A stretch of DNA of 26,051 bases from positions 1-26,051 of the IMG/VR virus record IMGVR_UViG_3300047564_003341, one strand, 5' to 3'. Of the stretch, positions 7,675 through 22,552 are shown one piece after another. The notes under the pieces were generated by a model, which ran no database searches, was not told the DNA's origin, and saw only the letters and a program-made list of their open reading frames with translations. Position numbers and translations under genes: made by a program. The DNA comes from a virus. How positions within the stretch are numbered: the stretch's first letter is position 1; the number at the start of each line of letters is the position of its first letter.

Positions 7675-8094
7675 ATGATGGAAGATGATTTTTATGCATC
7701 AATAAAATTAATCAGTGGTGAAGAAGTATTCGCAAGAGTAATGCCTTGCATAGAAAATGAAAATATTAATTTACTTTTAAATAATCCTGTAACATTCTCT
7801 GAAATTAAAAACAGAAATGGAATGTGTGGATATAAAATAGAACCATGGTTAAAAACTTCAAGAGAAGATTTAATTATGGTAAATATGGAAAGAGTAATTA
7901 CTATTTGCGAAAGTACTGATACTGAAATGATACAATTGCATCAATCATTTGTAGATAAGTATCAAAGTATAAAACACAAAAAACTCAGTAAAGGTAATGT
8001 GACTAGAAAGATGGGTTACATTGCTAATATAAAGGAAGCAAAAAATCTCCTTGAAAAGATCTATAAAAAATCCCCAGATAAACCAAGTATTTAA
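7675..8094 (+). CDS. Sm-like small protein 1 (phage Sm/Lsm-like family)
   Basis: A 139-residue protein with an N-terminal pattern shared with three other genes in the window: a strand ending SIKLISGEEVFARV, then INLLLNNPVTFSEI, a YKIEPWL motif, and a strand DLIMVNMERVITICES followed by a helix with a conserved Tyr (FVDKYQ). The K-L-x-SGE-x-V / NP / PW / V-x-x-x-x-V-x-x / Y order is the family signature. I recall a structural-genomics structure of an Sm-like protein of putative cyanophage origin with this sort of sequence, so an Sm fold (RNA-binding ring) is plausible. A basic tail (KHKKLSKGNVTRKMGY) of about 50 residues is unique to this copy and could bind nucleic acid. It is the last gene before the gp55 promoter. 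Confidence 0.65.
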   Translation: MMEDDFYASIKLISGEEVFARVMPCIENENINLLLNNPVTFSEIKNRNGMCGYKIEPWLKTSREDLIMVNMERVITICESTDTEMIQLHQSFVDKYQSIKHKKLSKGNVTRKMGYIANIKEAKNLLEKIYKKSPDKPSI

Positions 8095-8152
8095 AGATAT
8101 TAAATTATCTCAAAGGCGACAAACCTAGTCTACTTGCTTTTTGCCCATTTGT

Positions 8153-8162
8153 CAAGTACTTG
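8153..8162 (+). promoter_or_regulatory. Palindrome CAAGTACTTG at the -35 region (operator candidate)
   Basis: A perfect 10-base palindrome that shares its last three bases with the -35 box of the gp55 promoter. It is positioned where a repressor or activator dimer would act. It could be chance. Confidence 0.35.
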
Positions 8163-8188
8163 CAATATTGATGTTAAAATGTTATGAT
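8160..8188 (+). promoter_or_regulatory. Sigma70-like promoter for gp55-gp47-gp46 operon
   Basis: TTGCAA (8160-8165), a 17-base spacer and TATGAT (8183-8188) give a good host-type promoter in the 120-base gap before gp55. Transcription would start near 8195, 20 bases before ATG 8215. The rest of the 8095-8159 gap contains no ORF. It does contain a possible minus-strand promoter discussed in the findings. Confidence 0.72.
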
Positions 8189-8214
8189 GTCTACATAGTA
8201 AATTAGTAATTTTT

Positions 8215-8712
8215 ATGGCATACGGCAGTATCATGACTAAGAGGAAGAGGTCAGTTCATTACGTTAATAACAAAGATTTTTTGGAAGCTCTGATCAAATA
8301 TAGAGAAGAAGTTGATTTAGCGGAGCAAAGAGGTGATCCAAAACCAAGAATAAACAATTATCTTGGAGAATGTTTCTTAAAGATTGCTACTCATCTATCT
8401 TTCAAACCTAATTTTGTAAATTATATTTTTAAAGATGATATGATTTCTGATGGGATTGAGAATTGTATTCAATATATTCATAATTTTAATCCAGAAAAAT
8501 CAAAGAATCCATTTGCATATTTTACTCAAATTATTCACTACGCATTTTTGAGAAGAATTCAAAGAGAAAAGCGTCAACTAGAAATTAAAAATAAAATTCT
8601 TGAACGAACTGGATATGATGAAGTGTTTCATGATGATTCCAGTATTGACGGAATGAACTATAGCGACTATAATTCTATTAAGGACTCTGTTCACTCAAAA
8701 CTTCGTAATTGA
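8215..8712 (+). CDS. gp55: Late-transcription sigma factor gp55
   Basis: A 165-residue, highly diverged sigma70-family factor that directs host RNA polymerase to the TATAAATA late promoters (T4 gp55 has 185 residues). The match covers VNNKDFLEALIKYREE near the N-terminus and MISDGIENCIQYIHNFNPEK, corresponding to the T4 segment with MIADGIEASIKGLHNFDE. It continues through SKNPFAYFTQIIHYAFLRRI, the region-2-like DNA/-10 recognition segment, and QREKRQLEIKNKILERTGYD. A second in-frame ATG lies at 8233; neither has a clear ribosome binding site, and I keep the first. It is first in an operon with gp47 and gp46 behind a host-type promoter, so it should be made before the late switch it controls. 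Confidence 0.92.
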   Translation: MAYGSIMTKRKRSVHYVNNKDFLEALIKYREEVDLAEQRGDPKPRINNYLGECFLKIATHLSFKPNFVNYIFKDDMISDGIENCIQYIHNFNPEKSKNPFAYFTQIIHYAFLRRIQREKRQLEIKNKILERTGYDEVFHDDSSIDGMNYSDYNSIKDSVHSKLRN

Positions 8713-9750
8713 ATGAAAGTAGCAATTATTACTGATCAACACTTTGGAGCAAGGAAAAACTCTAAAATGTTTCATGAGCATTTTCTAAAATTTTATGAAA
8801 ATGTTTTTTTCCCAACACTAGAATCCGAAGGTATTGCCACTGTCATAGACATGGGTGATACCTTTGATAGTCGTAAAGGAATTGATTTTTCTGCTCTTGC
8901 TTGGGCAAAAAATCATTACTATGATAAACTCCAAGAAATGGGGGTAAAGGTTCATACAATTGTTGGAAATCATACTGCTTATTATAAGAATACAAATGAA
9001 ATTAATGCAGTAGATTTGCTTCTAAGAGAATATTCAAATATAACAGTATACAGTAACCCAACAGAAATTAAGATTGGAAATCTTGATGTTTTGTTATTGC
9101 CATGGATAAATGAAGAAAATGAAAAAGAAACTTACTCACTTATTGAAACTACATCTTGCATTTGTGCGATGGGGCACCTTGAGTTCTCGGGATTTAGAGT
9201 TAATTCGCAAATCGTCATGGAGCATGGTCTTTCAAGCAAATTATTTAAAAAGTTCAAACGTGTCTACTCGGGACACTATCACACTAGATCGAATGATGGA
9301 AAAATTTTCTACTTAGGAAATCCATATGAAATTTATTGGACTGATGTTTACGATAAGAGAGGATTCACAATCTTTGATACAGAAACTCTTAAACATCAAT
9401 CCATAGATAATCCTTATAATATTTTTGAAATTGTTTATTATGGAGAAGATACAACTCCAATTGAAAATAACGATTACGAAAATAAAATTGTAAAAGTTAT
9501 TGTAAAGCAAAAAGATAATCAACTTAAGTTTGAAAAATTTTTAGATAATTTGTATTCTCAAAATCCGGCAGAAGTTAAAATTGTTGAAAATTTTGAAATC
9601 AATATTAAAGACTTTGAAGAAGATATTGAATCTGAAGATACGGTCTCTATCTTAGATAGATATATTCAGGATTCTGAAATTGATATGGATAAATCTAAAA
9701 TTAGATCTATTATCAGGGAAATCTACAAGGAGTCGTGCGAGATGATTTAA
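8713..9750 (+). CDS. gp47: Recombination nuclease subunit gp47 (Mre11/SbcD-like)
   Basis: A 345-residue calcineurin-like phosphoesterase, close to T4 gp47 (339). It pairs with gp46 to resect DNA ends for recombination-dependent replication and host DNA breakdown. Metal ligands are visible in order: D8 and H10 (ITDQHFG), D49 (DMGDTFDSR), N86 and H87 (VGNHT), H155 (AMGHLEFSG), H188 and H190 (YSGHYHTR). The C-terminal half is acidic and carries the capping region. The ATG follows the gp55 stop directly, with no gap, indicating translational coupling. Confidence 0.95.
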   Translation: MKVAIITDQHFGARKNSKMFHEHFLKFYENVFFPTLESEGIATVIDMGDTFDSRKGIDFSALAWAKNHYYDKLQEMGVKVHTIVGNHTAYYKNTNEINAVDLLLREYSNITVYSNPTEIKIGNLDVLLLPWINEENEKETYSLIETTSCICAMGHLEFSGFRVNSQIVMEHGLSSKLFKKFKRVYSGHYHTRSNDGKIFYLGNPYEIYWTDVYDKRGFTIFDTETLKHQSIDNPYNIFEIVYYGEDTTPIENNDYENKIVKVIVKQKDNQLKFEKFLDNLYSQNPAEVKIVENFEINIKDFEEDIESEDTVSILDRYIQDSEIDMDKSKIRSIIREIYKESCEMI

Positions 9751-9751
9751 C

Positions 9752-10030
9752 ATGTATATAATAACATTGGATGGTAGAGAAGAAGAAGGCGCTTATTCAG
9801 TCACAAATGAACATGGAGAACAAGTTCTTTACATTTTTGAAGAAGAAGATGATGCAATTCGATTTGCCATGATGTTAGAAGATGATAGAAACTATCCTCC
9901 CATGCACGTTATTGAAGTTGATGATGACGCAATACTGACTGCATGTAGAGAACATGATTATGAGTATAATATATTTTCACAACATGATTTTGTAATTCCT
10001 CCTGACGAAGAAGAAAATGATTTTATTTGA
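9752..10030 (+). CDS. DUF3110-like acidic protein between gp47 and gp46
   Basis: A 92-residue, strongly acidic protein. The arrangement MYIITLDGREEEGAYSVTN, then VLYIFEEEDDAIRFAMMLED, then a MHVIEVDDDAILTACREH stretch and a YEYNIFS segment matches what I know of DUF3110, a small family common in cyanobacteria: an N-terminal YVL strand, F-E-x-E-D-D-A-x-R-Y-A-x-x-L-E helix, then an acidic helix with a Cys. The function of that family is unknown. Here it sits one base after gp47, and its last 14 bases overlap the start of gp46, so translation of the nuclease subunits is coupled through it. Its cyanobacterial affinity is one of the better host clues in the window. Confidence 0.68.
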   Translation: MYIITLDGREEEGAYSVTNEHGEQVLYIFEEEDDAIRFAMMLEDDRNYPPMHVIEVDDDAILTACREHDYEYNIFSQHDFVIPPDEEENDFI

Positions 10031-11729
10031 AACAATTCGATGGAAAAACTTTTTAAGCACTGGAGATCAGTTTATTGAAGTTAATTTTTTAAAAGATCAA
10101 ACAACATTAATTGTTGGTCAAAATGGTGCAGGAAAAAGTACTATTTTGGATGCTCTCACATTTGTTTTATTTGGTAAATCTTTTCGTGGAATTAACAAAC
10201 CACAATTGATCAATTCTACAAATGAAAAAGAGTGTGTTGTTGAAATTGAATTCAAAATTGGATCTGTAAATTGGAAAGTTAAAAGGGGAATAAAACCTTC
10301 AATATTTGTTATTGAAAGAAATGGCAAAGAGTTGGATCAGCAACATTCATCCGCAGAACAGCAAAAGTGGTTTGAACAAACTGTTCTTAAAATGAATTAT
10401 AAATCATTCACTCAAGTGGTAATTATTGGAAGCAGTAATTTTGTTCCATTTATGCAGTTAACTTCTGTTAATCGTAGAGAAGTTATTGAAGATCTTCTTG
10501 ACATTAAAATCTTTTCTTCAATGAATTCATTGATTAAAGATAAAATAAAATTGACTAAAGATGAAATTAGAACTTTAGAACTCAAAAGAGATTCTTTGAG
10601 AGACAAAGTTGAAATGCAGGAAGATTTTATTAAAAAAATTAAAAATGAAGGAAATAATAAAGTTAAAGAATTAGAACAAGAAATTGAAGAGATCATATCT
10701 CAAGAAAAAGTGTCAATATCTTATAATAATAAGTATGAAGAAGAAATTATCTATCTTCAAAATAAGATGGAAGAACTTTCGTATTCTAAAGACACTTTAA
10801 AAAAACTTACAAATATTAAAGGTAAGTTGTCACAAAAAGTAGTAACGATTACTGAAGAGCATGAGTTTTTCCGTAATAATTCGGTATGCCCTACCTGCAC
10901 ACAAAATATAGAAGAATCTTTTAGATTAAATAGAATTAGTGATGCCATAAACAAGGCAAAAGAACTGCAATCTGGTTATGAAGAACTTGAGCAGACTATT
11001 CGTGATGAAGAAATTAAAGAAGATCATTTCCTTCAAATTTCAAAAGAAGTCACTAACTTAACACATGAAATTTCTCAAAATAATCTTAGGATCACTGGAT
11101 TCCAACGGAGAATCAGAGATAATGAAAAAGAAATTCAAAGAATTACCAATGACCTGGAAAATGAAAATTCTGAATATGAAAAGTTAGAGGATTTTAAGAA
11201 AAGACTTAATACTATTTTTGAAGAATTGTCCGAGAAAAAGGAAACAAATTCATACTATGAATATTGTTATAGTCTTTTAAAGGATTCGGGAGTAAAAACT
11301 CAAATCATCAAAAAATATCTACCATTCATTAACCAACAGGTGAATAGATATCTTCAGATGATGGATTTTTATATCAATTTTTCTCTTGATGAAGAGTTTA
11401 ACGAAACGATTCAATCACCGATTCACGAAGATTTTACCTATGGGTCTTTTAGTGAAGGTGAACGACAAAGAATTGACTTAGCACTTTTGTTCACTTGGAG
11501 AGAAGTTGCTAAATTTAAAAATTCTACAAATACTAATCTATTAATTATGGATGAGGTATTTGATAGTTCTCTTGATGGTAATGGAACTGAAGAATTTATT
11601 AAAATTCTTCGTTATGTTGTTCAAGATGCAAACACTTTTGTCATATCTCATAAAGTTGGTATGGAAGATAGGTTTGAAAGTGTGCTAAAATTTGAAAAGT
11701 ATAAAGGATTTAGTAGAGTTGTAAAATGA
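10017..11729 (+). CDS. gp46: Recombination nuclease subunit gp46 (Rad50/SbcC-like)
   Basis: A 570-residue SMC-like ATPase (T4 gp46 is 560). It has an N-terminal Walker A, GQNGAGKS (34-41), and a Q-loop region near VVIIGSSNFVPFMQ. A long coiled coil runs from about residue 165 to 410, interrupted by a zinc-hook CPTC (291-294). The C-terminal lobe carries the signature GSFSEGERQRIDLALLF and Walker B LLIMDEVFDSSLD, then the ISHK switch region. It forms the MR-type complex with gp47. The start overlaps the DUF3110-like gene by 14 bases, and its stop overlaps the next start (ATGA). Confidence 0.95.
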   Translation: MILFETIRWKNFLSTGDQFIEVNFLKDQTTLIVGQNGAGKSTILDALTFVLFGKSFRGINKPQLINSTNEKECVVEIEFKIGSVNWKVKRGIKPSIFVIERNGKELDQQHSSAEQQKWFEQTVLKMNYKSFTQVVIIGSSNFVPFMQLTSVNRREVIEDLLDIKIFSSMNSLIKDKIKLTKDEIRTLELKRDSLRDKVEMQEDFIKKIKNEGNNKVKELEQEIEEIISQEKVSISYNNKYEEEIIYLQNKMEELSYSKDTLKKLTNIKGKLSQKVVTITEEHEFFRNNSVCPTCTQNIEESFRLNRISDAINKAKELQSGYEELEQTIRDEEIKEDHFLQISKEVTNLTHEISQNNLRITGFQRRIRDNEKEIQRITNDLENENSEYEKLEDFKKRLNTIFEELSEKKETNSYYEYCYSLLKDSGVKTQIIKKYLPFINQQVNRYLQMMDFYINFSLDEEFNETIQSPIHEDFTYGSFSEGERQRIDLALLFTWREVAKFKNSTNTNLLIMDEVFDSSLDGNGTEEFIKILRYVVQDANTFVISHKVGMEDRFESVLKFEKYKGFSRVVK

Positions 11730-12541
11730 GTAAACTAACTGAAATTGTAACTGTAGGAATTATTGGAAACGGATTTGTTGGAAATGCAGTATATCAAAAC
11801 TTTAGGGATAAAGTAACCTGTAAAGTTTATGATGTTGATGCAAATAGATCACTTAATACATTGTCTGAAGTATTATCATGTGATTTTATTTTTGTTTGTC
11901 TTCCAACACCAATGAAATCTGGCGGGCAGTGCGACCTTTCTATTTTAGATAACTTTTTTGCTACTTGCTCCACAAATATAAATGGCATATTTATCATTAA
12001 ATCCACAGTTCCAATTGGAACTACTAAAAAGTATTCTCAAATGGGATTTAATGTTGTTCATAATCCAGAGTTTTTGACTGCAAGAAATGCAGTGGAGGAC
12101 TTTAAAAACTCTGAGAGAAATGTTATTGGTGGTGATCTTAAATTGGTAGAAAAGGTTGATACCTTATTTGTGAATACTTTTCATTACATTCCTTCTATCT
12201 ACACAACATCCGATGAGAGTGAGGCAATTAAATACTTTGCAAATAGTTTCTTAGCATATAAGGTAGCATATTTCAATAAGATCTATGACTTGTGCCAAGC
12301 AACTGGAATGGATTATGATACAGTATGCAATGGTGTCACCACAGACAGCAGAATCGGATCATCCCACACAAAAGTCCCTGGTATTGACAATGACAGAGGT
12401 TTTGGAGGAACATGCTTCCCGAAAGATCTGAATTCCCTGATAGTTCAGATGGAATCCCACGGAGTCAATGCCGATATGCTAAAATCTGTCTGGTCCTACA
12501 ATCAAGAAATTCGCACGGTCATCGACTGGCCGACTACCTAA
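11726..12541 (+). CDS. Short UDP-glucose/GDP-mannose dehydrogenase-like protein
   Basis: A 271-residue nucleotide-sugar dehydrogenase relative. The N-terminal Rossmann motif is VGIIGNGFVGNAV (G14, G16, G19), followed by DFIFVCLPTPM, IIKSTVPIGTT and NVVHNPEFLTARNAVEDF, all standard for UDP-glucose dehydrogenase. The catalytic Cys is present at C230 in GFGGTCFPKDLNSL. Full-length enzymes have about 390-450 residues with a C-terminal UDP-sugar-binding domain. That domain is absent: the protein stops soon after the central helix (YNQEIRTVIDWP). It may work as a compact version, lack full oxidation activity, or act on another ligand. It overlaps gp46 by four bases, so it belongs to the same operon, probably as auxiliary metabolism for host or phage surface sugars. 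Confidence 0.85.
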   Translation: MSKLTEIVTVGIIGNGFVGNAVYQNFRDKVTCKVYDVDANRSLNTLSEVLSCDFIFVCLPTPMKSGGQCDLSILDNFFATCSTNINGIFIIKSTVPIGTTKKYSQMGFNVVHNPEFLTARNAVEDFKNSERNVIGGDLKLVEKVDTLFVNTFHYIPSIYTTSDESEAIKYFANSFLAYKVAYFNKIYDLCQATGMDYDTVCNGVTTDSRIGSSHTKVPGIDNDRGFGGTCFPKDLNSLIVQMESHGVNADMLKSVWSYNQEIRTVIDWPTT

Positions 12542-12542
12542 C

Positions 12543-12731
12543 ATGAAAGTCCCTAATTGGCAACATCATTCCAAGAAGGATCAAAAACGGAAACTGAAAC
12601 CTCAGGCACTCCGACAAGCAAAAGCACGACTGAGACACTTTAAAAAGTGTCACATGACCTCCCCGAAACGGGAGGTTTTTTCGTGTATACTGATTTCAGT
12701 CGAACGAACCCACCATGTCTGTCAACTATGA
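12543..12731 (+). CDS. Small basic protein, hypothetical
   Basis: A 62-residue ORF beginning MKVPNWQHHSKKDQKRKLKP and continuing QALRQAKARLRHFKKCHM. The first 37 residues are very rich in Lys, Arg and Gln and could form a basic helix that binds nucleic acid. It starts two bases after the dehydrogenase stop, a spacing typical of real genes here. The last third overlaps two hairpins, a terminator, a promoter-like box and the first 17 bases of the next gene, which is unusual for a coding sequence. The gene may be real with a tail read from regulatory DNA, or the ORF may be accidental. I recognise no family with certainty. Confidence 0.42.
   Translation: MKVPNWQHHSKKDQKRKLKPQALRQAKARLRHFKKCHMTSPKREVFSCILISVERTHHVCQL
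12634..12651 (+). other. Hairpin GACACTT/AAGTGTC upstream of the terminator
   Basis: A 7-bp stem with a TAAA loop, five bases before the terminator hairpin. It has no T run of its own. It forms a tandem pair with the following hairpin. Confidence 0.6.
12657..12681 (+). terminator. Intrinsic terminator of the gp55-gp46 operon
   Basis: ACCTCCC (12657-12663) pairs with GGGAGGT (12670-12676), followed by TTTTTT. It would end the transcript from the 8160 promoter before the VWA gene, although it lies inside the small basic ORF. Confidence 0.8.
12686..12717 (+). promoter_or_regulatory. TATACT...TTCAGT leader, copy 1 (promoter-like)
   Basis: TATACT (12686-12691) resembles a -10 box and is followed by a TTCAGT and a GAACGAACCCACC stretch leading straight into ATG 12715. 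No -35 match is visible at the usual distance. A near copy lies at 14964 before the partner ATPase gene. There is no Shine-Dalgarno sequence between it and the ATG. Confidence 0.55.
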
Positions 12732-14910: not shown

Positions 14911-14944
14911 TGGACAGTTCGCAGGGTGTCCACTCTGGACACCC
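14911..14944 (+). other. Mutually exclusive hairpins between the VWA and AAA+ genes
   Basis: GGGTGTCC (14924-14931) can pair with GGACACCC (14937-14944), an 8-bp stem with a 5-base loop. An upstream TGGACA (14911-14916) can instead pair with the same TGTCCA (14927-14932). The two structures compete. No T run follows, so it is not a standard terminator. It lies directly after the VWA stop codon. Confidence 0.6.
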
Positions 14945-16152: not shown

Positions 16153-16183
16153 TGGGAGAGGTAATTATGCTTCTCCCCTTTTT

Positions 16184-16747
16184 ATGGAAAATAATCAAAG
16201 TATGTTTGAGGCAGCAGCAAATTTAAATAAAAATCCAGTTAATTTGCCAAACGATCTTAGACAACTTCTAAATCAATTATCCGAAGAAGATACTGCATGT
16301 GCAGAATGCTATGCAACCGCTCCTGATTGGACAAGACTAACTCCAAACATGCCATCAATTTTGAAGGAGAACTCTCAAATGAATGGCCCAAAAATTAATG
16401 AAGAACAATTTGAAACTCTCCCCGAAATGCAAAAACAAAACCAAAGCAATTTAAGTAAGGAATCCAATAATGGGTTTTGGAAATATAATGAAGATAAAAT
16501 TCTTAAGCAATTGGAAAGTTACATTTCAAGTACTTATAGTCAGCATTATGTTGACCGAACTGGAAATGGAACGGAGCAAACTCTAGATAAAATTAAACAT
16601 AATCGTCGTGAGGGGTTTTGTGCTGGTAATGTTACCAAGTACATTGATCGATATGATACAAAAGGAACTCCCCGAGCAGATTTGTTTAAAGTTCTTCATT
16701 ATACAATTCTTCTCATCAACCATCTTGACCTGATTGAAAATAAGTGA
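16184..16747 (+). CDS. DUF3310-like protein
   Basis: A 187-residue protein. The C-terminal 80 residues carry the signature of DUF3310, a small helical domain common in phages. It begins with SQHYVDRTGNGTEQTLDKI, continues with REGFCAGNVTKYIDRYDTKG, and ends with RADLFKVLHYTILLINHL. The biochemical role of the family is unknown to me. The first 110 residues are polar and low-complexity, and contain TACAECYATAPDW with two Cys. I start at ATG 16184 because the longer frame would begin inside the -10 box of the promoter. It is the first gene of the operon that encodes the sliding clamp, and its stop lies just before the gp45 ATG. Confidence 0.78.
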   Translation: MENNQSMFEAAANLNKNPVNLPNDLRQLLNQLSEEDTACAECYATAPDWTRLTPNMPSILKENSQMNGPKINEEQFETLPEMQKQNQSNLSKESNNGFWKYNEDKILKQLESYISSTYSQHYVDRTGNGTEQTLDKIKHNRREGFCAGNVTKYIDRYDTKGTPRADLFKVLHYTILLINHLDLIENK

Positions 16748-16749
16748 TT

Positions 16750-17418
16750 ATGAAACTCTCTGAAAAAACTACCAGCATCCTCAAAAATTTCTCTGTAATT
16801 AATAGTTCAATTCTTTTTAAGAAGGGAAATCGACTTCGTACTATTTCGGTAATGAAAAACATTTACGCTGAAGCAGTTGTGACAGAAGATTTTCCAAAAG
16901 ATTTTGGAGTTTATGATCTCCCTCAATTTCTTGGAGGATTGAATCTTTATAAGCAACCAGAACTCATTTTTGATAATGATGGGTATGTTGTCATTAAAGA
17001 AGGTAAGTCACGATCCAAGTTCTTCTTTGCTAGTCAAAATACTATTGTAACTCCTCCCGATAAAGAAATTTCTCTCAATTCTGAAGATGTGTTCTTTCAA
17101 ATTGACACAAATCAACTAGATAAACTGATCAAAGCATCCAATACTTATCAAGCACCAGATTTGTCTGTTATTGGTAAAAATGGTGAAGTTGATTTGATTG
17201 TAAGGGACAAGAAAAATGATACCTCTAACGACTTTTCATTTAATGTTGGAGAAACTGATTTGGATTTTTCTTTGAATTTTAAAGTGGAGAATCTTAAGAT
17301 TATTACGGGATCTTATGAAGTTGCAATCTCAAAAAATAATCTTGCTAGATTTAAAAGTAAAGATTATGATCTGACATACTATATTGCTCTTGAACCAGAT
17401 TCTTCATTTAATGAATGA
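16750..17418 (+). CDS. gp45: DNA polymerase sliding clamp gp45
   Basis: A 222-residue processivity clamp (T4 gp45 has 228). It forms a ring trimer that holds gp43 on DNA and in T4 also activates late transcription with gp33 and gp55. The N-terminal MKLSEKTTSILKNFSVINSS, then ILFKKGNRLRTISVMKNIYA and VYDLPQFLGGLNLY are typical of T4-type clamps, and the C-terminus ends YDLTYYIALEPDSSFNE. I start at ATG 16750; a GTG at 16744 in the same frame would only add two residues and overlaps the previous stop. The stop codon overlaps the next start (ATGA). Confidence 0.95.
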   Translation: MKLSEKTTSILKNFSVINSSILFKKGNRLRTISVMKNIYAEAVVTEDFPKDFGVYDLPQFLGGLNLYKQPELIFDNDGYVVIKEGKSRSKFFFASQNTIVTPPDKEISLNSEDVFFQIDTNQLDKLIKASNTYQAPDLSVIGKNGEVDLIVRDKKNDTSNDFSFNVGETDLDFSLNFKVENLKIITGSYEVAISKNNLARFKSKDYDLTYYIALEPDSSFNE

Positions 17419-17633
17419 ATTCAAATACCCTTAGAATTTTAGGAAGTGTACTACTTGTAGTAGGGTACTTCCTTGTTTTGTATGTAGATATGAAAATCGG
17501 ATGTACTGTCCGATTGGTTGGGAACTTGGCAATGATCCCATTTGCTGTTAAGATACGTACATGGGATGTCGTTGTTCTGGAAGCATTCTTTTCATTCATC
17601 GACCTCTCAAAAATTATTGAACTTTCATTATGA
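17415..17633 (+). CDS. Small membrane protein in the replisome operon
   Basis: A 72-residue protein with no family I recognise. It is hydrophobic. A probable transmembrane segment spans residues 8-24 (ILGSVLLVVGYFLVLYV), a second about 32-46 (VRLVGNLAMIPFAV) and a third hydrophobic stretch about 51-65 (DVVVLEAFFSFIDL). It overlaps the gp45 stop by four bases and overlaps the next start (ATGA) by four bases, so it is translationally coupled to both. It may anchor replication factors at the membrane or act independently of them; the sequence does not tell. Confidence 0.65.
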   Translation: MNSNTLRILGSVLLVVGYFLVLYVDMKIGCTVRLVGNLAMIPFAVKIRTWDVVVLEAFFSFIDLSKIIELSL

Positions 17634-18142
17634 ACATCTTTGTTACTTCACCATGGCCTGCGGAATCTGCTATTTGTCTACCAGATAAGCACATTGTTAA
17701 AATGCCTCTAGAGTGCTGTCAGATGCTTTCCATTGTGGCATCGGAAAAATGGGGACACGGGTATGGATACCTTTATAAGACCGATCACACCCCGTACAAG
17801 ACCGATAAGGGGGCATTCAGGAATCATCCATGCACCATCTGGGCAGCAGAGTCGATTCACAATGCTTATTGGTTGATTAAACATGGACTTAATTTGTGCG
17901 ATGAGTATTCCTTGAGATATGGTAAAACCCACGCTTGCTACAAAACTCTTGTGGATTCCTTTTACTTATTTCCTAAAGGTAAAATTGACCAAGTAACATC
18001 ATTTGCCCGTGCTATGCCAGATGAATATAAACTTGACACAAGCATTGACACTTTTACTGCTTACAAGATGTATATCGCATCCAAACCTTGGGTTGCATCT
18101 AATTATCTTCGTATGCCGCAACGTAAACCTGAATGGATTTAA
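17630..18142 (+). CDS. Conserved phage protein, distantly like the pyrimidine-dimer-glycosylase (Pyr_excise/MSMEG_6728) family
   Basis: A 170-residue protein that I associate with a recurrent cyanophage family. The order is NIFVTSPWPAESAICLPDKH, then IVKMPLECCQMLS, then AFRNHPCTIWAAESIHNAYW, and LIKHGLNLCDEYSLRYGKTH. It parallels a bacterial family annotated as pyrimidine-dimer glycosylase: an N-terminal strand, an L-D-x-x-R/H-x-x-K-x-x-x-E-x-x-Q-I-L helix, a GW-x-NHP-x-x-x-W block and an E-W/Y-x-x-R-G helix. A DNA repair role would fit the replication context. The correspondence is by eye and does not show T4 endonuclease V residues in register. It ends with a WVASNYLRMPQRKPEW tail. It overlaps the previous gene by four bases and gp44 begins three bases after it. 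Confidence 0.6.
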   Translation: MNIFVTSPWPAESAICLPDKHIVKMPLECCQMLSIVASEKWGHGYGYLYKTDHTPYKTDKGAFRNHPCTIWAAESIHNAYWLIKHGLNLCDEYSLRYGKTHACYKTLVDSFYLFPKGKIDQVTSFARAMPDEYKLDTSIDTFTAYKMYIASKPWVASNYLRMPQRKPEWI

Positions 18143-18145
18143 ATT

Positions 18146-19093
18146 ATGAGTAACACTGATTTTCTTTGGGTCGAGCAATATAGACCCCAAACTATTGATG
18201 AATGCATTCTTCCGGAAAGAACCAAAGAAACATTCAAGCAGTTTGTAAATAAGGGTGAAATTCCTAATCTACTTCTTGCTGGACCTCCAGGAGTTGGTAA
18301 AACCACAGTTGCAAAGGCATTGTGCTCCGAACTTGGAGTTGATTTTTATTATATTAATGGTTCTGATGAAGGTCGATTTCTTGACACTGTGAGGAATCAA
18401 GCAAAAAACTTTGCATCTACTGTTTCCATCACATCTGATGCAAAACATAAAGTTATTATTATTGATGAGGCAGACAATACTGGAAATGATGTCCAACTTT
18501 TGTTGAGGGCAAATATTGAACAATTTAGTAGTAATTGTAGATTTATTTTCACCTGCAACTATAAGAACAAGATTATTGAACCACTACATAGTCGGTGTGC
18601 TGTAATTGAGTTTTCTTTGAAGGGTAAAGATAAATCTAAATTGGCGGGAGAATTTCTTCAAAGATTGGAAGATATTCTTGATGAAAATTTAGTTTCTTAC
18701 GATGAAAAAGTTCTAATTCAATTGGTTAAAAATTATTTTCCAGATTGGAGAAGAGTCCTAAATGAATGTCAAAGATATTCTGCCGGAGGTAAAATTGATT
18801 CTGGTATCCTTGCAATGTTTTCTGATGTTGCAGTTGATGATTTGATCGACAATTTGAAGGGTAAAAAATTTAATGATGTTCGTAAATGGGTTGTGTCAAA
18901 CCTTGATAATGACGCAAGCACTATTCTTCGTAAAATTTATGACGCTTGCTATGAAAAATTGACACCAGCGAGTATTCCTATTGCAATTTTAATTGTTGCA
19001 AAGTATCAGTATCAATCAGCATTTGTTGCCGATCAGGAAATTAACCTACTTGCAGCATTAACTGAAATCATGGTAGAATGTGAGTTTAAATGA
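18146..19093 (+). CDS. gp44: Clamp loader large subunit gp44
   Basis: A 315-residue AAA+ ATPase (T4 gp44 is 319). Four copies join one gp62 to open the gp45 clamp. Residues 8-14 (WVEQYRP) are the usual clamp-loader N-terminus. Walker A is GPPGVGKT (46-53), Walker B is VIIIDEAD (103-110), and the SRC motif with the arginine finger is at 149-151. The C-terminal collar domain follows. The Sm-like gene begins ten bases after the stop, and the ribosome binding site of that gene overlaps the gp44 stop codon. Confidence 0.96.
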   Translation: MSNTDFLWVEQYRPQTIDECILPERTKETFKQFVNKGEIPNLLLAGPPGVGKTTVAKALCSELGVDFYYINGSDEGRFLDTVRNQAKNFASTVSITSDAKHKVIIIDEADNTGNDVQLLLRANIEQFSSNCRFIFTCNYKNKIIEPLHSRCAVIEFSLKGKDKSKLAGEFLQRLEDILDENLVSYDEKVLIQLVKNYFPDWRRVLNECQRYSAGGKIDSGILAMFSDVAVDDLIDNLKGKKFNDVRKWVVSNLDNDASTILRKIYDACYEKLTPASIPIAILIVAKYQYQSAFVADQEINLLAALTEIMVECEFK

Positions 19094-19095
19094 GG
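19092..19095 (+). promoter_or_regulatory. Shine-Dalgarno GAGG deciding the start of Sm-like gene 2
   Basis: GAGG overlaps the gp44 TGA and lies eight bases before ATG 19104. It supports that ATG over the upstream in-frame GTG at 19080. Confidence 0.65.
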
Positions 19096-19103
19096 TATTA
19101 AAA

Positions 19104-19397
19104 ATGTTGAATGTAAAACTTGTTAGAATGTCCAGTGGTGAAGATGTTATTACTAATATAGTCGAAGAGACTGATTCACACATTAAACTAAAAAATCCTA
19201 TTGTGTCCTTTCCAACTCAAGAAGGCAGAATCGGATTTGTTCCTTGGTCTCCTTTGATCGATAAAAAAAATCCAGAAATGGAAGTTTCTAAGAATTTTAT
19301 CGTTTACATTGCGGATCCAGATGTAACGATTGTTGAACAGTACAATCAAATGTTTGGAAGTAAACTTGTAACTCCAAATAAAGATCTTATTCTCTGA
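19104..19397 (+). CDS. Sm-like small protein 2 (between gp44 and the DruA-like gene)
   Basis: A 97-residue protein, the most compact member of the four-copy family here. The order is LNVKLVRMSSGEDVITNIVE, then HIKLKNPIVSFPTQEGRIGF, VPWSPLIDKKNPEMEV, a strand NFIVYIADPDVTIVEQYNQM and a short tail. The SGE, NP, PW and Q-Y positions line up with the copies at 7675, 21958 and 22262. Sm-like proteins form rings that bind RNA; that activity is inferred from resemblance. The start is ATG 19104, chosen by its ribosome binding site. The stop overlaps the next ATG (TGATG), indicating coupling to the DruA-like gene. Confidence 0.7.
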   Translation: MLNVKLVRMSSGEDVITNIVEETDSHIKLKNPIVSFPTQEGRIGFVPWSPLIDKKNPEMEVSKNFIVYIADPDVTIVEQYNQMFGSKLVTPNKDLIL

Positions 19398-20455
19398 TGT
19401 TATCACCCGAACAAGCAATTTGGGCAGCAGATCAATTTATTGACTACTACTCAAAATTCAATAGAATTGATGATTATCTTAGATTTGTAAAGAATAGTAG
19501 AATTATGGAATCCTCTGGTAAATTATTTGGACCAGAGTATGAAATATTTTCAGATTTCAATATTCATCCAATGGATATGGATTTTAAAATTTGCGTAGTT
19601 GATACTTCTGCAAAACCTAAATCCAAATATAATCAAGATCTTTATGCTGAAATTTTGAATGATACGGCATCAAATGCAATAGAAGAAGCAATTCCAGGAA
19701 GAACATTGAAATGGATAGTTGAAGAAACCAATACCAATAAAATTGTTGGAGTGATTAGATTTGGGTCTCCAACAATAAACAGTAAACCTCGTAATGATTA
19801 TTTCGGTGAAGTCCTTCCTCTATCTGATATTAACTCTCATTTTGTCATGGGTTTTAATATTGTTCCTACTCAACCTTTTGGATTCAATTACTTGGGAGGG
19901 AAATTACTGGCCCTTTTAGCTTCATCAAATGAACTAAAGCGTCAATTTGATTCAAAGTATGGTACGGATCTTAAGTATTTTGAAACCACATCTTTATATG
20001 GAACAACTAAAGGTGTATCTATGTATGATGGACTTAAACCATATATTAAACATATAGGGGATACTGAAAGTAAATTTCTTCCTCTATTTCATGATGATTA
20101 CTTTCGTGAAATGTTTTGGTGGTTTAATAATAATGCCAACGGTGGAGAACGATTAATCTCTGCCGACAAATCTTCTAAAAAATTGAAAATTCAAACCAAG
20201 ATGATTTCAATCATCACAAAGTCTCTTCAAGATGCTTCAAAGTTACATGAGTTTAAACAATGTATTGAACATGCCAAATCTTTAACTGAGAAAAAAAGAT
20301 ATTACTTATCAAAATTTGGATATGAAGTTGAAGAGGTAATTCAATGGTGGAAAAGAAAATCTACAAAAAGATATGAGAAATTGAAAAATTCAGGACTTCT
20401 TAGAACTGAACTTGAATTGTGGAAACCTGGAGTTGATTTGGAGATTATCCGATGA
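19397..20455 (+). CDS. DUF4338/DruA-like protein between gp44 and gp62
   Basis: A 352-residue protein resembling the DUF4338 (DruA) family. The core runs KIVGVIRFGSPTINSKPRND (about 115-134), then HFVMGFNIVPTQPFGFNYLG (148-167) and GKLLALLASS. It continues with FDSKYGTDLKYFETTSLYG (184-202) and SMYDGLKPYIKHIGDT (208-223). These echo the family features of a VG-x-I-x-F strand, an R-F-x-I-x-P strand, an L-G-x-x-L-L helix, a Y-G-...-E-T segment and an x-x-x-x-IG-x-T end. The N-terminal 100 residues and the basic C-terminal helical domain (KRYYLSKFGYEVEEVIQWWK) are extra. In bacteria DruA belongs to Druantia anti-phage systems and its biochemical activity is unclear. Here it lies inside the clamp-loader operon, overlapping gp62 by four bases. 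Confidence 0.62.
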   Translation: MLSPEQAIWAADQFIDYYSKFNRIDDYLRFVKNSRIMESSGKLFGPEYEIFSDFNIHPMDMDFKICVVDTSAKPKSKYNQDLYAEILNDTASNAIEEAIPGRTLKWIVEETNTNKIVGVIRFGSPTINSKPRNDYFGEVLPLSDINSHFVMGFNIVPTQPFGFNYLGGKLLALLASSNELKRQFDSKYGTDLKYFETTSLYGTTKGVSMYDGLKPYIKHIGDTESKFLPLFHDDYFREMFWWFNNNANGGERLISADKSSKKLKIQTKMISIITKSLQDASKLHEFKQCIEHAKSLTEKKRYYLSKFGYEVEEVIQWWKRKSTKRYEKLKNSGLLRTELELWKPGVDLEIIR

Positions 20456-20838
20456 CTATTGAATTGAAAGACTGGTTAAATTCTATAAACTATACAAAAG
20501 AAAATTTGATGGAGGGTGACCCATCGAATAAAAAAGAATATCCATCTTATATTATTAATAGATGTTTGTCCGGACATTTGGATTGTGTTTTATTTGCTAA
20601 TGAAATTAACAAATATCCAAGTCTGGATAAGGATCTTCAATATTTGTTTTTTATAAATACATTGAGGAAAAAGAAGAGATTCTCTCCCTGGCTCCGTAAG
20701 GATAGTGTAAAAGATTTGGAATGTGTTAAGCAATACTATGGTTATAGTAATGAAAAAGCATCCCAGGCTTTAAAGATCCTTAGAAATGATCAAATTAATT
20801 GGATCAAACAACGACTTGATATTGGCGGATTAACATGA
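20452..20838 (+). CDS. gp62: Clamp loader small subunit gp62
   Basis: A 128-residue protein, shorter than T4 gp62 (187). The N-terminus is MTIELKDWLNSINYTKENLM, the middle has YIINRCLSGHLDCVLFANEI, and the block LRKKKRFSPWLRKD is typical of marine gp62. The C-terminal part (GYSNEKASQALKIL) is a helix ending IKQRLDIGG. Gp62 completes the gp44/62 clamp loader. Position between gp44 and regA is as in T4, apart from the two inserted genes. The stop overlaps the regA start (ATGA). Confidence 0.88.
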   Translation: MTIELKDWLNSINYTKENLMEGDPSNKKEYPSYIINRCLSGHLDCVLFANEINKYPSLDKDLQYLFFINTLRKKKRFSPWLRKDSVKDLECVKQYYGYSNEKASQALKILRNDQINWIKQRLDIGGLT

Positions 20839-21272
20839 CAAACCAAACTATTGAACCTCAAGTAAATTGGTCTCCCGACATGATGGTAGAAGTTACCCTT
20901 AGGGAACCAGACGATTTCTTAAAAGTAAGAGAAACCCTTACAAGAATCGGAGTAGCATCGAGAAAAGAAAAAAAATTGTATCAAAGTGCCCATATTTTAC
21001 ATAAACAGGGTAGATACTACATCACTCATTTTAAGGAATTGTTTGCTTTGGACGGCAAACATGCAAACCTTACTGTGAATGATGTTCAAAGAAGAAACCG
21101 TATTATTCGACTTCTTTCGGATTGGGGACTTATTGAAGTAATTGATGAGGAAAAAATTATGGATATTGCACCTCTCAATCAAATCAAGGTCATTGCGTAC
21201 AAAGAAAAAAACGAATGGATTCTTGAACAAAAATATAATATCGGTGTTAAAAAAAGAACAGTTTCTGAGTAA
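20835..21272 (+). CDS. regA: Translational repressor RegA
   Basis: A 145-residue protein clearly matching T4 RegA (122). VEVTLREPDDFLKVRETLTR, then KKLYQSAHILHKQGRYYITH, FKELFALDGK and RNRIIRLLSDWGLIE match the T4 protein nearly position by position. RegA binds the start regions of early mRNAs (in T4 including genes 44, 45 and regA itself) and blocks translation. The N-terminus has an extra stretch of about 14 residues before the T4-like part. It is last in its operon; a terminator follows 20 bases after the stop. Confidence 0.95.
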   Translation: MTNQTIEPQVNWSPDMMVEVTLREPDDFLKVRETLTRIGVASRKEKKLYQSAHILHKQGRYYITHFKELFALDGKHANLTVNDVQRRNRIIRLLSDWGLIEVIDEEKIMDIAPLNQIKVIAYKEKNEWILEQKYNIGVKKRTVSE

Positions 21273-21292
21273 TTCGGAAAACACTATAGAAT

Positions 21293-21320
21293 AATGGGGG
21301 TTTCAACACCTCCATTTTTT
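21293..21320 (+). terminator. Intrinsic terminator after regA
   Basis: A 9-bp stem, AATGGGGGT (21293-21301) with ACCTCCATT (21308-21316, one G-T pair), followed by T residues up to 21320. It closes the long operon that starts at 16124. Confidence 0.8.
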
Positions 21321-21335
21321 ATGCTTATGTTAATA

Positions 21336-21341
21336 TATACT
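21336..21341 (+). promoter_or_regulatory. TATACT -10-like box upstream of hsp20
   Basis: TATACT lies 16 bases after the regA terminator, with no convincing -35. The predicted start near 21348 would give a leader of about 50 bases before hsp20. The same hexamer occurs before the VWA and AAA+ genes. An ATG at 21344-21348 in this region is too close to be the hsp20 start. Confidence 0.5.
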
Positions 21342-21396
21342 ATGGATGCCTTCGGGGTCCACAAAATACAAACTCGCTTTTAAAGGAGCTACTATA

Positions 21397-21834
21397 ATGA
21401 CTAATCTCGCACGATTAAATACGTCGGATCTTCCTACCCTTATGGATAGGATTCATCGATATGGTATTGGTTTTGATGATTACTTTTTTGATAGATTCTG
21501 GAATCTTCACGAAACGACTTCAAATTATCCCCCATATAACTTAGTTACGTTAAGCAATGTCGAATCACGTTTGGAAATCGCACTCGCAGGATTTAAGAAA
21601 AAGGAAGTTTTTGTCTACACGCAAGACGGAAAACTCTTTGTGGAAGGGCAAAAAGAAGACAAGGAAACGGAGTCCACCTACGTACACAAAGGATTGGCGC
21701 AACGATCCTTCACTAGATCTTGGACTCTCGCAGATGACACAGAAGTTAGATCAGTTGAATTTGAGGATGGATTGTTGAGCGTTGTTCTTGGTAAAATTGT
21801 TCCAGAATCTCATAAACGAAAAGATTATCTATAA
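21397..21834 (+). CDS. hsp20: Small heat-shock protein Hsp20 (alpha-crystallin type)
   Basis: A 145-residue small heat-shock protein, an ATP-independent holdase. The N-terminal arm includes RYGIGFDDYFFDRFWNLHE. The alpha-crystallin domain runs from about YNLVTLSNVESRLEIALAGF through KKKEVFVYTQDGKLFVEGQK and QRSFTRSWTLADDTEVRSVE to EDGLLSVVLGKIVPE. Hsp20 genes are common in T4-like cyanophages next to the gp43 cluster, as here. The ATG at 21397 has a clear AAGGAG eight bases upstream (21383-21388); the ATG at 21346 has none. It lies between two terminators and is probably transcribed alone. Confidence 0.93.
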   Translation: MTNLARLNTSDLPTLMDRIHRYGIGFDDYFFDRFWNLHETTSNYPPYNLVTLSNVESRLEIALAGFKKKEVFVYTQDGKLFVEGQKEDKETESTYVHKGLAQRSFTRSWTLADDTEVRSVEFEDGLLSVVLGKIVPESHKRKDYL

Positions 21835-21837
21835 ATA
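21830..21837 (+). promoter_or_regulatory. Late promoter TATAAATA overlapping the hsp20 stop
   Basis: An exact late-promoter match with its predicted start at G21843. No protein gene begins for 115 bases downstream, and the terminator at 21883 intervenes. It therefore appears to serve the non-coding RNA candidate. Confidence 0.65.
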
Positions 21838-21842
21838 ATATT

Positions 21843-21924
21843 GGGCTACCCCCGATAACTATCGTTGTCGCATACTCAAATTAGGAGGGGAACTGGCAAA
21901 AACCAGTTGACACCCCTCCTTTTT
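21843..21924 (+). ncRNA. Candidate late non-coding RNA (about 82 nt)
   Basis: The segment is bounded by an exact late promoter (21830-21837, start predicted at G21843) and a strong branched terminator ending in a T run at 21924. It contains no ORF. Internal structure is a short GGG/CCC hairpin at 21843-21851, a small CGAT/ATCG hairpin at 21853-21864, a single-stranded stretch and the terminator itself. The last arm carries CCCCTCCTTTTT, which resembles the anti-Shine-Dalgarno end of 16S rRNA, paired to AGGAGGGG. The transcript is an inference; no expression evidence exists here. Confidence 0.45.
21883..21924 (+). terminator. Branched intrinsic terminator after hsp20
   Basis: The outer stem AGGAGGGG (21883-21890) pairs with CCCCTCCT (21913-21920). 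An inner stem AACTGG (21891-21896) pairs with CCAGTT (21903-21908) around a CAAAAA loop. A GACA bulge separates the two on the 3' side. T residues run to 21924. The bulge and part of the inner stem form the -35 box of the following promoter. Confidence 0.82.
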
Positions 21925-21935
21925 CTTGGTAAAAT
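21907..21935 (+). promoter_or_regulatory. Near-consensus extended sigma70 promoter for the gp43-uvsX operon
   Basis: TTGACA (21907-21912, perfect), a 17-base spacer and TAAAAT (21930-21935), with an extended TGg just before the -10. The 3' arm of the terminator lies entirely in the spacer. Transcription starts near 21942, before ATG 21958, and would cover both Sm-like genes, gp43, the microprotein and uvsX. Confidence 0.85.
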
Positions 21936-21957
21936 GGTAAGAGGTATTAAGAGGAAA

Positions 21958-22335
21958 ATGACCGTAAAAGTTTTATTGTTAAAATCCGGTGAACAGATCA
22001 TTGCAGATATTAATGGCATGTTCCGTGGAGAGGATCTAGTTAAGTATCAATTGATTAAACCATGTCAAGTGATAATCAATGGGGAATTTCGCGTCACAGA
22101 ACCTCATGAAGAGGTGGCTGAAAATCAAATGAGCGTTTCTCTTTATCCTTGGCCTGCTCTAACCGAGGATGAAACGGTTGAGATTTTTTGTGATTGGGCA
22201 GTAACTATGGTAAATCCTAGTAGTAATCTTAAAGAAATGTATGAAACACAGGTATTGAAAAATGACAGAAGAGAAGAAGGAACCGAAATTAATCAAAGCG
22301 ATTCTTCTGATGAACAATCAATTGTTGATCAGTGA
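21958..22335 (+). CDS. Sm-like small protein 3
   Basis: A 125-residue member of the same family as the genes at 7675, 19104 and 22262. The order is MTVKVLLLKSGEQIIADING, a YQLIKPCQVII strand (KP in place of NP), MSVSLYPWPALTEDETVEIF with the PW motif, and a DWAVTMVNPSSNLKEMYETQ segment with the conserved Tyr. It ends in an acidic Ser/Asp/Gln tail. The start is ATG 21958, after two GAGG elements and downstream of the predicted transcription start; longer readings start on weak codons inside the promoter. The last 74 bases overlap the next gene in another frame. An RNA-binding Sm role is inferred from family resemblance. Confidence 0.68.
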   Translation: MTVKVLLLKSGEQIIADINGMFRGEDLVKYQLIKPCQVIINGEFRVTEPHEEVAENQMSVSLYPWPALTEDETVEIFCDWAVTMVNPSSNLKEMYETQVLKNDRREEGTEINQSDSSDEQSIVDQ

Positions 22336-22552
22336 AATTGAACAGATAGCATGTGATATAGGTGAACCAGATTGTAGATTGACAGACCCCTATTTGGTAA
22401 ATCAATTGACGGGGGAAATCGAAGGAACATGGTTACAAGAATTTTCAAAACCAGGAGTAAATTCATTTGAAATTCATTCCGATAAAATAGTAACCTTTTT
22501 TACTCCAAGAGCAACACTTCTAGAAAAATACACAGAGCATCTTATCAAATGA
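22262..22552 (+). CDS. Sm-like small protein 4, overlapping protein 3 by 74 bases
   Basis: A 96-residue diverged member of the family. IKAILLMNNQLLISEIEQIA matches the position of VKVLLLKSGEQIIADI in protein 3, with the SGE replaced by NNQ. CRLTDPYLVNQL matches the strand with DP for NP, WLQEF replaces PW, and FEIHSDKIVTFFTPRATLLE ending with KYTEHL matches the last strand and helix. The ATG at 22262 is kept because the first strand would be lost with any later start. The loss of SGE suggests it may not bind the same ligand as the others, or acts only as a partner. The stop overlaps the gp43 start (ATGA). Confidence 0.6.
   Translation: MTEEKKEPKLIKAILLMNNQLLISEIEQIACDIGEPDCRLTDPYLVNQLTGEIEGTWLQEFSKPGVNSFEIHSDKIVTFFTPRATLLEKYTEHLIK

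What the first reader, a model, noticed from the sequence alone, without database searches (positions are those of the whole stretch)
7675..22552. Four divergent Sm-like paralogues distributed through the replication genes
Genes at 7675, 19104, 21958 and 22262 share the order K-x-L-x-x-SGE-x-V, a strand with NP/KP/DP, PW or W-L, then a V-x-x-x-x-V strand and a helix with a conserved Tyr. They sit directly after uvsW, after gp44, and as a pair before gp43. Sm-like rings bind U- or A-rich RNA, and this is an AT-rich phage that also encodes RegA. Four different subunits could form mixed rings, or each could control a specific early mRNA. Protein 1 has a basic tail, protein 3 an acidic one and protein 4 has lost SGE, so specialisation is likely. 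I recall a structural paper on an Sm-like protein of putative cyanophage origin, but I do not know of any study of multiple copies acting together.
Basis: partly seen in the sequence, partly recalled or inferred. Interest (0 to 1): 0.75.

Follow-up and report, generated by a model that had tools for sequence, protein, structure and literature searches.

The report
Cyanophage sets of Sm-like ring proteins
A virus whose relatives infect photosynthetic bacteria carries four related small genes for proteins of the ring-forming Sm-like kind beside its DNA-copying genes, and its named relatives carry matching sets of three to five, so a protein known from a single structure turns out to be a conserved multi-member set whose job is still unknown.

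Summary
The four genes (7675-8094, 19104-19397, 21958-22335, 22262-22552) are mutually related, and a family profile finds no other member in this record. Profile comparison links 6 of 6 pairs at 91-98.5%; 39 of 39 other pairs stay under 7%. Profiles of all four find the Sm-like structure 3by7. Models of Sm1 and Sm4 have the Sm barrel and match 3by7 best; Sm2 and Sm3 were not modelled. The set is normal for its lineage: 15 of 15 named cyanophages hold 3-5 copies: Sm1 between uvsW and gp55, an overlapping Sm3-Sm4 pair before gp43, and Sm2 in 4 of 15. A Pelagibacter phage has one, between uvsW and gp55, probably the ancestral place. RNA binding is unproven: canonical contact residues (recalled) are absent and cores are acidic. 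Searches made found no paper on a multi-copy set.

The parts
7675..8094 (+). Sm1 (139 aa; phrog_471, annotated elsewhere as 'methylamine utilization'): Sm barrel plus a conserved C-terminal extension
   Evidence: phrog_471 E 4.7e-33; AF2 model pLDDT 82, best PDB match 3by7 Z 12.1, rmsd 1.7 over 82 residues; 1 nt after the uvsW stop
8011..8070 (+). Conserved C-terminal helix of Sm1 (residues 113-132, MGY..V..AK..LEK.YK type)
   Evidence: G114 in 95% and E127 in 97% of 73 rows; helix 119-132 in the model, low to middling confidence there
19104..19397 (+). Sm2 (97 aa; phrog_527), accessory paralogue whose profile scores highest with 3by7
   Evidence: phrog_527 E 3.9e-31; 3by7 E 5.1e-7 alone, 1.1e-12 with ortholog profile; group scores to 3by7 51, 46, 43, 34 bits for Sm2, Sm3, Sm4, Sm1
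21958..22335 (+). Sm3 (125 aa; phrog_431) with acidic tail
   Evidence: phrog_431 E 8.8e-22, Pfam DUF6561 30.5 bits, cut-off 27; profile finds 3by7 E 2.2e-9
22262..22552 (+). Sm4 (96 aa; phrog_483), GE turn lost
   Evidence: Pfam DUF6561 76.6 bits, cut-off 27; AF2 model pLDDT 84, 3by7 Z 11.9, rmsd 1.7 over 78 residues
22262..22335 (+). 74-nt overlap of the Sm3 and Sm4 frames
   Evidence: frames overlap in 29 of 31 contig pairs, near-copies included
6207..7673 (+). uvsW, fixed upstream neighbour of Sm1
   Evidence: upstream of Sm1 in 84 of 84 contigs with room to tell
8215..8712 (+). gp55 late sigma factor, fixed downstream neighbour of Sm1
   Evidence: phrog_234; downstream of Sm1 in 86 of 86 contigs with room to tell
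18146..19093 (+). gp44 clamp loader, usual upstream neighbour of Sm2
   Evidence: within 300 nt upstream in 51 of 62 contigs
22549..25056 (+). gp43 DNA polymerase, start overlaps the Sm4 stop by 4 nt
   Evidence: gap of -4 to +2 nt in 28 of 29 contigs

Best explanation
The four genes are members of one old viral family of Sm-fold proteins of the 3by7 type. (Shown: homology, fold, synteny. Inferred: the rest.) The single ancestral copy most likely sat between uvsW and gp55, where a Pelagibacter phage still keeps its only copy; duplication in the cyanophage lineage gave Sm3 and its likely derivative Sm4 at gp43 and Sm2 after gp44. Each probably closes into a small ring, most likely of five identical subunits as in 3by7, with Sm3 and Sm4 made together from overlapping frames and possibly sharing a ring. 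The rings are made beside the recombination helicase, clamp loader and polymerase, and most likely hold single-stranded nucleic acid, RNA before DNA, at the pore side through paralogue-specific loop-5 residues (basic-aromatic in Sm2, D-W in Sm3, invariant S in Sm4), while different tails (conserved helix in Sm1, acidic in Sm3) recruit different partners. They would then act as stabilisers, chaperones or recruiters for phage RNA or for RNA at replication forks, not as one mixed four-part ring.
For: Homology of the four. Profiles of all four against the PDB find 3by7: Sm1 7e-6, Sm2 1.1e-12, Sm3 2.2e-9, Sm4 3.8e-8. Sm fold of Sm1 and Sm4: 3by7 Z about 12; the other entries among the 50 listed are Sm/LSm rings, TIP60, or, by title and recall, proteins with Sm-type domains. 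Ring: 3by7 has 5 chains, TIP60 60; TIP60 is described as a fusion with a 'pentameric LSm' (PMC10374429, passages). Ancestral place: HTVC008M has one copy in four profile searches, between helicase and late sigma factor; it joins Sm1 in the tree (97/81) and phrog_471 first among PHROGs. Sm1 and Sm4 are clean groups (99/95, 100/99), Sm4 within an unresolved cluster with Sm3. Tightly coupled gene places. Loop 5: Sm2 K/R63 29 of 48 and F/H65 46 of 48; Sm3 D79 28 of 37, W80 25 of 37; Sm4 S73 35 of 35.
Against: Nothing here shows a ring or any bound nucleic acid for these proteins. Core net charge is negative in every row of the four groups (medians -8, -6, -7, -8) and median pI is 4.4-5.0, unlike a typical RNA binder; but the whole Sm1 of this window is basic (pI 8.37), and 19 of 29 window proteins computed have pI under 6. 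Canonical loop-3 Asp/Asn, loop-5 Arg-Gly and Hfq Lys-His are not conserved (canonical motifs recalled). The tree has 97 columns for 59 rows, 18 open forks and a very long HTVC008M branch; by HMM score HTVC008M is nearer Sm3 (36.5 bits) than Sm1 (31.2), by hhalign equal (92.1, 91.5). 3by7 sits next to Sm1, not Sm2, in the tree (96/75). Sm2 and Sm3 were not modelled. One 196-kb contig (L071) has Sm4 but no detectable Sm3.
Confidence: 0.5

Rival explanations
1. Protein scaffold, not nucleic acid binder: the rings are replisome or recombination accessory factors that bind UvsW, the clamp loader or polymerase (or host proteins), the Sm fold serving as a ring scaffold only.
For: Net negative cores in all rows of the four groups; no canonical RNA-contact residues; close coupling to uvsW, gp44 and gp43; conserved C-terminal helix in Sm1 that could be a docking peptide.
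Against: Neighbourhood does not prove contact; conserved loop-5 residues per paralogue suggest a ligand or nucleic acid site.
Confidence: 0.27
2. One reading: two or more paralogues co-assemble into one hetero-oligomeric ring, most plausibly Sm3 with Sm4, perhaps with Sm1.
For: Sm3 and Sm4 overlap in 29 of 31 contig pairs; Sm1, Sm3 and Sm4 occur together in 15 of 15 named cyanophages; Sm4 clusters with Sm3 in the tree. Hetero-rings after duplication are the eukaryotic Sm precedent (recalled). Raised from 0.18 to 0.20 on review for the constant trio.
Against: For a ring of all four: copy number 3, 4 or 5 and Sm2 in 4 of 15; 3by7 and TIP60 are each made of one chain type. L071's contig has Sm4 with no detectable Sm3. 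No direct evidence of any mixed assembly.
Confidence: 0.2
3. Chance likeness: four unrelated small beta proteins that share a short motif.
Against: 6 of 6 profile pairs at 91-98.5% against 39 of 39 controls at or under 6.5%; all four profiles find the same solved structure.
Confidence: 0.01

Closest known systems
PDB 3by7 (JCVI_PEP_1096686650277), Sm/LSm-like protein, and the TIP60 cage built on it (7eq9, 7xm1, 9uol)
   Same: Same family by sequence profile (E 1e-12 to 7e-6) and best fold match, Z about 12
   Different: One orphan protein, highest in Sm2 profile score but next to Sm1 in the tree; here are four diverged paralogues with set places, two with distinct tails
Pfam PF20198 DUF6561 and PF16243 Sm_like
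   Same: Sm3 and Sm4 pass the DUF6561 cut-off; Sm1 matches both models and Sm2 DUF6561, all below the cut-offs
   Different: No Pfam model covers all four above its cut-off; no paper with the word DUF6561 turned up
Canonical Sm/LSm rings and Hfq
   Same: Sm barrel; eukaryotic and archaeal Sm/LSm chains make up nearly all the other rows listed (Z 7.1-8.3 and 5.5-6.6)
   Different: No N-terminal helix in the models, a C-terminal helix instead; canonical RNA-contact residues absent; Pfam LSM not reported for the four
The small gene after uvsW in a T4-type Klebsiella phage (UvsW.1; name recalled)
   Same: Same slot after uvsW (L212)
   Different: Another family (phrog_1143), no profile likeness to the Sm groups

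Membership tests
3by7-type Sm-like family | Sequence profile detects 3by7 | tested here: met
   4 of 4 paralogue profiles, E 1.1e-12 to 7e-6 against 177,635 PDB sequences
3by7-type Sm-like family | Same fold | tested here: met
   Sm1 Z 12.1, Sm4 Z 11.9 to 3by7; 2 of 4 modelled, Sm2 and Sm3 by sequence only
3by7-type Sm-like family | Homopentameric ring | not testable with these tools
   No multimer prediction; pentamer known for 3by7 and TIP60 only
Pfam DUF6561 (PF20198) | Score above curated cut-off 27 bits | tested here: inconclusive
   Sm3 30.5 and Sm4 76.6 pass, Sm2 21.3 and Sm1 17.9 do not
Pfam Sm_like (PF16243) | Score above curated cut-off 29.4 bits | tested here: not met
   Only Sm1 matches, 24.2 bits
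Canonical Sm/LSm/Hfq | Five-stranded Sm barrel | tested here: met
   Strand order and Sm/LSm fold matches for Sm1 and Sm4
Canonical Sm/LSm/Hfq | N-terminal helix before strand 1 (recalled) | tested here: not met
   Models of Sm1 and Sm4 start with strand 1 at residues 6 and 10; helix is C-terminal
Canonical Sm/LSm/Hfq | Loop-3 Asp/Asn and loop-5 Arg-Gly, or Hfq Lys-His (recalled) | tested here: not met
   Column counts in 73, 48, 37 and 35 rows; Sm2 and Sm3 loops were mapped by sequence alignment, not by a model
Canonical Sm/LSm/Hfq | Binds U- or A-rich RNA | not testable with these tools
   Needs binding assays
Eukaryotic-type hetero-oligomeric Sm ring of these four | All four subunits always found together | tested here: not met
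   Sm2 in 4 of 15 named cyanophages; 3, 4 or 5 copies in 9, 5 and 1. A trio Sm1, Sm3, Sm4 is found in 15 of 15, so a smaller hetero-ring is not excluded

The most novel reading that the evidence does not exclude
A virus-encoded, multi-paralogue Sm system with division of labour: cyanophages took an uvsW-linked ancestral pentamer and expanded it into a core set (Sm1, Sm3-Sm4, sometimes Sm2) that acts on phage RNA, also in hosts that lack Hfq (10 of 12 Prochlorococcus strains, PMC2518516), with Sm3-Sm4 forming a hetero-ring, a viral parallel to the archaeal-to-eukaryotic Sm expansion.
Probability: 0.17. Interest if true: 0.85.

Novelty: new variant of a known kind. Interest (0 to 1): 0.55.

Why it matters
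Several hypothetical or misnamed genes found in every named cyanophage examined here turn out to be one family of proteins with a known fold and set positions in the replication region. One of them is carried in databases as 'methylamine utilization', which is very probably wrong. This makes testable what conserved unknown genes of T4-like cyanophages do, and whether viruses have evolved their own multi-member Sm sets.

Tried and rejected
Chance similarity: rejected. Obligate four-member ring: disfavoured by the absence of Sm2 from 11 of 15. Sm2 remnant in S-SM2: the region of the 135-nt gene T4-GC 158 was translated and shows no Sm2 by eye. Sm gene in T4, KVP40, Klebsiella VPA32, two Rhizobium and two Stenotrophomonas phages: phrog_431 finds none. 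But P0002 matches one Stenotrophomonas record by tblastn (row not shown), and BFVD lists fold matches to Sm4 in Stenotrophomonas IME-SM1, Burkholderia BcepSauron and Ralstonia phiRSL1 phages, so more distant Sm-like genes outside cyanophages are likely; not followed.

Hits not counted as copies: KVP40 (phrog_527 E 0.017, in a 516-aa frame), P-SSM2 at 195896 (phrog_483 E 3.4e-4, part of a 310-aa frame), P-TIM68 at 145436 (phrog_431 E 0.0105), S-SRM01 at 129284 (E 0.029, three stops). The tool's 14 control genomes ring in 3, 5 and 6 cases for phrog_431, 483 and 527 at E up to 1, so weak hits mean little; for phrog_471 at E up to 0.01 in 0 of 14. Every counted copy of the 15 named cyanophages has E of 2.2e-10 or better with at least one profile.

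Post-uvsW genes of Rhizobium (L210) and Stenotrophomonas (L209) phages look Sm-like by eye but score no better than their own shuffles against the Sm groups; the Rhizobium type has only sub-threshold Sm matches. A search for more of it in viral contigs found none. Weak P0004 matches to WD-40 propeller chains (down to E 1e-6, but no stretch passing), and the Sm4 profile's match to a designed protein (E 2.3e-4, no stretch passing) were taken as chance.

Rows set aside: the third P-HM2 frame (out_PHM2) was left out of the tree; Sm2_SRSM4, Sm3_SRSM4b and Sm3_PHM2b were left out of the HMMs but kept in the profiles. Counts by contig include near-identical contigs: 90 Sm1, 69 Sm2, 32 Sm3 and 32 Sm4 hits are 58, 44, 19 and 20 distinct proteins. 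For A1, 55 of 56 listed Sm1 rows plus the window were used; for A2, 19 of 20; for A4, 18 of 19; for A5, 31 of 42.


Full report
WHAT IS THERE. The window is a 26,051-base virus record, 34.9% GC, T4-like by its genes; the best named DNA matches of its 18-25 kb part are cyanophages S-SRM01 (from a Singapore reservoir), S-SM2 and SynMITS9220M01. Its own host is not known; a cyanobacterium is inferred. Sm1 starts 1 nt after uvsW, Sm2 10 nt after gp44, Sm4 overlaps Sm3 by 74 nt and gp43 by 4 nt.

ARE THEY RELATED. hmmscan assigns them to phrog_471, 527, 431 and 483, and each of these profiles also hits at least one other of the four with E under 0.001. One profile, phrog_431, finds these four places in the record and nothing else. 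I gathered orthologs from 15 named cyanophages and from metagenomic virus contigs and compared group profiles: Sm1-Sm2 91.2, Sm1-Sm3 96.6, Sm1-Sm4 96.3, Sm2-Sm3 98.5, Sm2-Sm4 94.7, Sm3-Sm4 98.4% probability, against a highest control of 6.5% in 39 pairs.

ARE THEY SM-LIKE. P0002 alone matches PDB 3by7 at 5.1e-7; P0003 only weakly (0.0099 to TIP60, 0.1 to 3by7); P0001 and P0004 alone do not match it. Ortholog profiles of all four find it: 7e-6, 1.1e-12, 2.2e-9, 3.8e-8 for Sm1 to Sm4. AlphaFold2 models of Sm1 (mean pLDDT 82.2, pTM 0.64) and Sm4 (83.7, 0.72) show six strand segments and C-terminal helix; I read segments 4 and 5 as one interrupted fourth strand of the five-stranded barrel. Foldseek puts 3by7 and TIP60 first for both; for Sm4 no PDB match reaches E 0.001 (best 1.9e-3), for Sm1 seven do, all 3by7 or TIP60. 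VIA-align gives 3by7 Z 12.1 (rmsd 1.7, 82 residues) and Z 11.9 (rmsd 1.7, 78 residues); the further listed entries, at Z 7.1-8.3 and 5.5-6.6 below the TIP60 rows, are Sm/LSm proteins or, by title and recall, Sm-type domains. Those Z values alone would be middling; it is 3by7 that stands out. Of 50 predicted viral structures listed for Sm4, 17 are from named cyanophages and 2 are called 'Sm-like domain'.

DISTRIBUTION. In 19 named phages searched with phrog_431 and phrog_483, phrog_527 and phrog_471, 15 of 15 cyanophages have Sm1, Sm3 and Sm4 types: three copies in nine, four in Syn9, P-HM2, S-CAM1, S-B64 and S-SCSM1, five in S-RSM4 (my union of these calls; hits not counted and the tool's control rings are given under Tried and rejected). 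True Sm2 is in Syn9, S-CAM1, S-B64 and S-SCSM1. P-HM2 and S-RSM4 hold an additional Sm3-like copy; S-RSM4 also one far away that the tree does not place with Sm2. Pelagibacter phage HTVC008M has one copy; Vibrio phage 2.275 has one (best with phrog_527, E 1.7e-10; hhalign 96% to Sm2, though the tree sets it in the Sm3-Sm4 cluster); T4 has none, KVP40 none that I accept. By single-sequence tblastn over 50,697 phage records P0001 meets 394 records and P0002 353, all but a few named as cyanophages or marine viruses; P0003 61 and P0004 88, fewer than the profile searches imply. Eight long metagenomic contigs (fragments) give three to five copies each.

PLACE. Over the contigs with room to tell, Sm1 has uvsW upstream in 84 of 84 and gp55 downstream in 86 of 86; Sm4 lies -4 to +2 nt from gp43 in 28 of 29; Sm3 and Sm4 frames overlap in 29 of 31; Sm2 follows gp44 within 300 nt in 51 of 62 (contigs include near-copies, and were fetched by Sm1, Sm2 or Sm4 likeness). 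HTVC008M's only copy is also between the helicase and the late sigma factor. In a T4-type Klebsiella phage the gene after uvsW is of an unrelated family.

HISTORY. In a 59-row tree Sm1 (99/95) and Sm4 (100/99) are clean groups, five of six Sm2 rows form one (98/92), Sm3 is an unresolved set around Sm4; 3by7 and HTVC008M fall on the Sm1-Sm2 side. There are only 97 columns, 18 open forks and several long branches, HTVC008M the longest, and HMM scores put HTVC008M a little nearer Sm3 than Sm1. So I infer, with moderate trust and mainly from position, an ancestral uvsW-linked copy, then duplications, Sm4 from Sm3.

HOW IT MIGHT WORK. Shown: family, fold, gene order. Inferred: rings, since 3by7 has five chains and TIP60 sixty, TIP60 being described as a fusion with a 'pentameric LSm' (PMC10374429, passages read). 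Loop 5, which in canonical Sm proteins contacts RNA (recalled), is conserved differently in each group: Sm2 S-K/R-N/K/R-F/H, Sm3 D-W, Sm4 invariant S, Sm1 mixed. This suggests a site with different ligands. Against plain RNA binding: core charge is negative in every row, medians -8, -6, -7, -8. Control: 19 of 29 window proteins computed have pI under 6, while RegA, gp62, gp55, UvsW and the whole Sm1 are above 8. Tails differ by group. The Hfq gene is absent from 10 of 12 Prochlorococcus strains, but present in the other completely sequenced cyanobacteria (PMC2518516, passages); this leaves room for phage-made Sm proteins in some hosts and is no evidence for it.

LITERATURE. The core-gene paper of T4-like cyanophages (PMC3037559, section 14 and term passages) calls the remaining core genes hypothetical and has no 'Sm-like', 'Lsm' or 'methylamine' in its main text; its supplements were not read. 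The S-SCSM1 record calls its Sm1 'Sm-like RNA-binding protein', but the S-SCSM1 paper has no 'Sm-like' in the main text (PMC9602691, term search). The structural paper on an Sm-like protein of putative cyanophage origin is recalled; that phrase brought no such paper among those listed from the held library. Searches for Sm-like proteins with cyanophages or phages (listings, besides the passages named) showed no paper on several copies acting together; most subscription papers are not held.

VERDICT. Real, lineage-wide and under-described; a new variant (multi-paralogue, syntenically fixed) of a known kind (3by7-type Sm-like protein). Function open; a ring of all four unlikely, smaller mixed rings open.

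Noticed in passing
window 19397-20455: 352-aa gene next to Sm2 matches Pfam DruA (Druantia defence protein DruA, 40.9 bits, cut-off 27) and two PADLOC DruA models weakly; 'putative cytoplasmic protein' at this place in S-SM2 and S-SRM01. A DruA-like gene among phage replication genes is odd.
   Followed up: partly
window 11726-12541: UDP-glucose/GDP-mannose dehydrogenase-like gene (Pfam PF03721, PF00984), matching the NAD-binding and central domains, after gp46 in the recombination gene cluster.
   Followed up: partly
window 388-1113: FkbM-type methyltransferase (Pfam PF05050) just after the end of the portal gene.
   Followed up: partly
window 17630-18142: Pyrimidine dimer DNA glycosylase (Pfam PF03013) between clamp and clamp loader.
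   Followed up: partly
L210:3502-3768, L215-L218: Rhizobium, Sinorhizobium and Agrobacterium phages have a small gene next to uvsW whose best Pfam and PDB matches, all below threshold, are Sm/LSm. The slot after uvsW may hold Sm-like proteins more widely.
   Followed up: partly
L209:3479-3904: Stenotrophomonas phages carry a 141-aa protein between uvsW and gp55 that looks Sm-like by eye, but is not above shuffled sequences.
   Followed up: partly
G005:66336-66743 and G006:124029-124397 (contigs of L026, L044): Fifth Sm copies about 17-18 kb from the nearest other copy.
   Followed up: no
BFVD A0A8S0HZU4: A 605-aa viral protein matches the Sm4 model over about 100 columns, perhaps an Sm domain fused to something else.
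   Followed up: no
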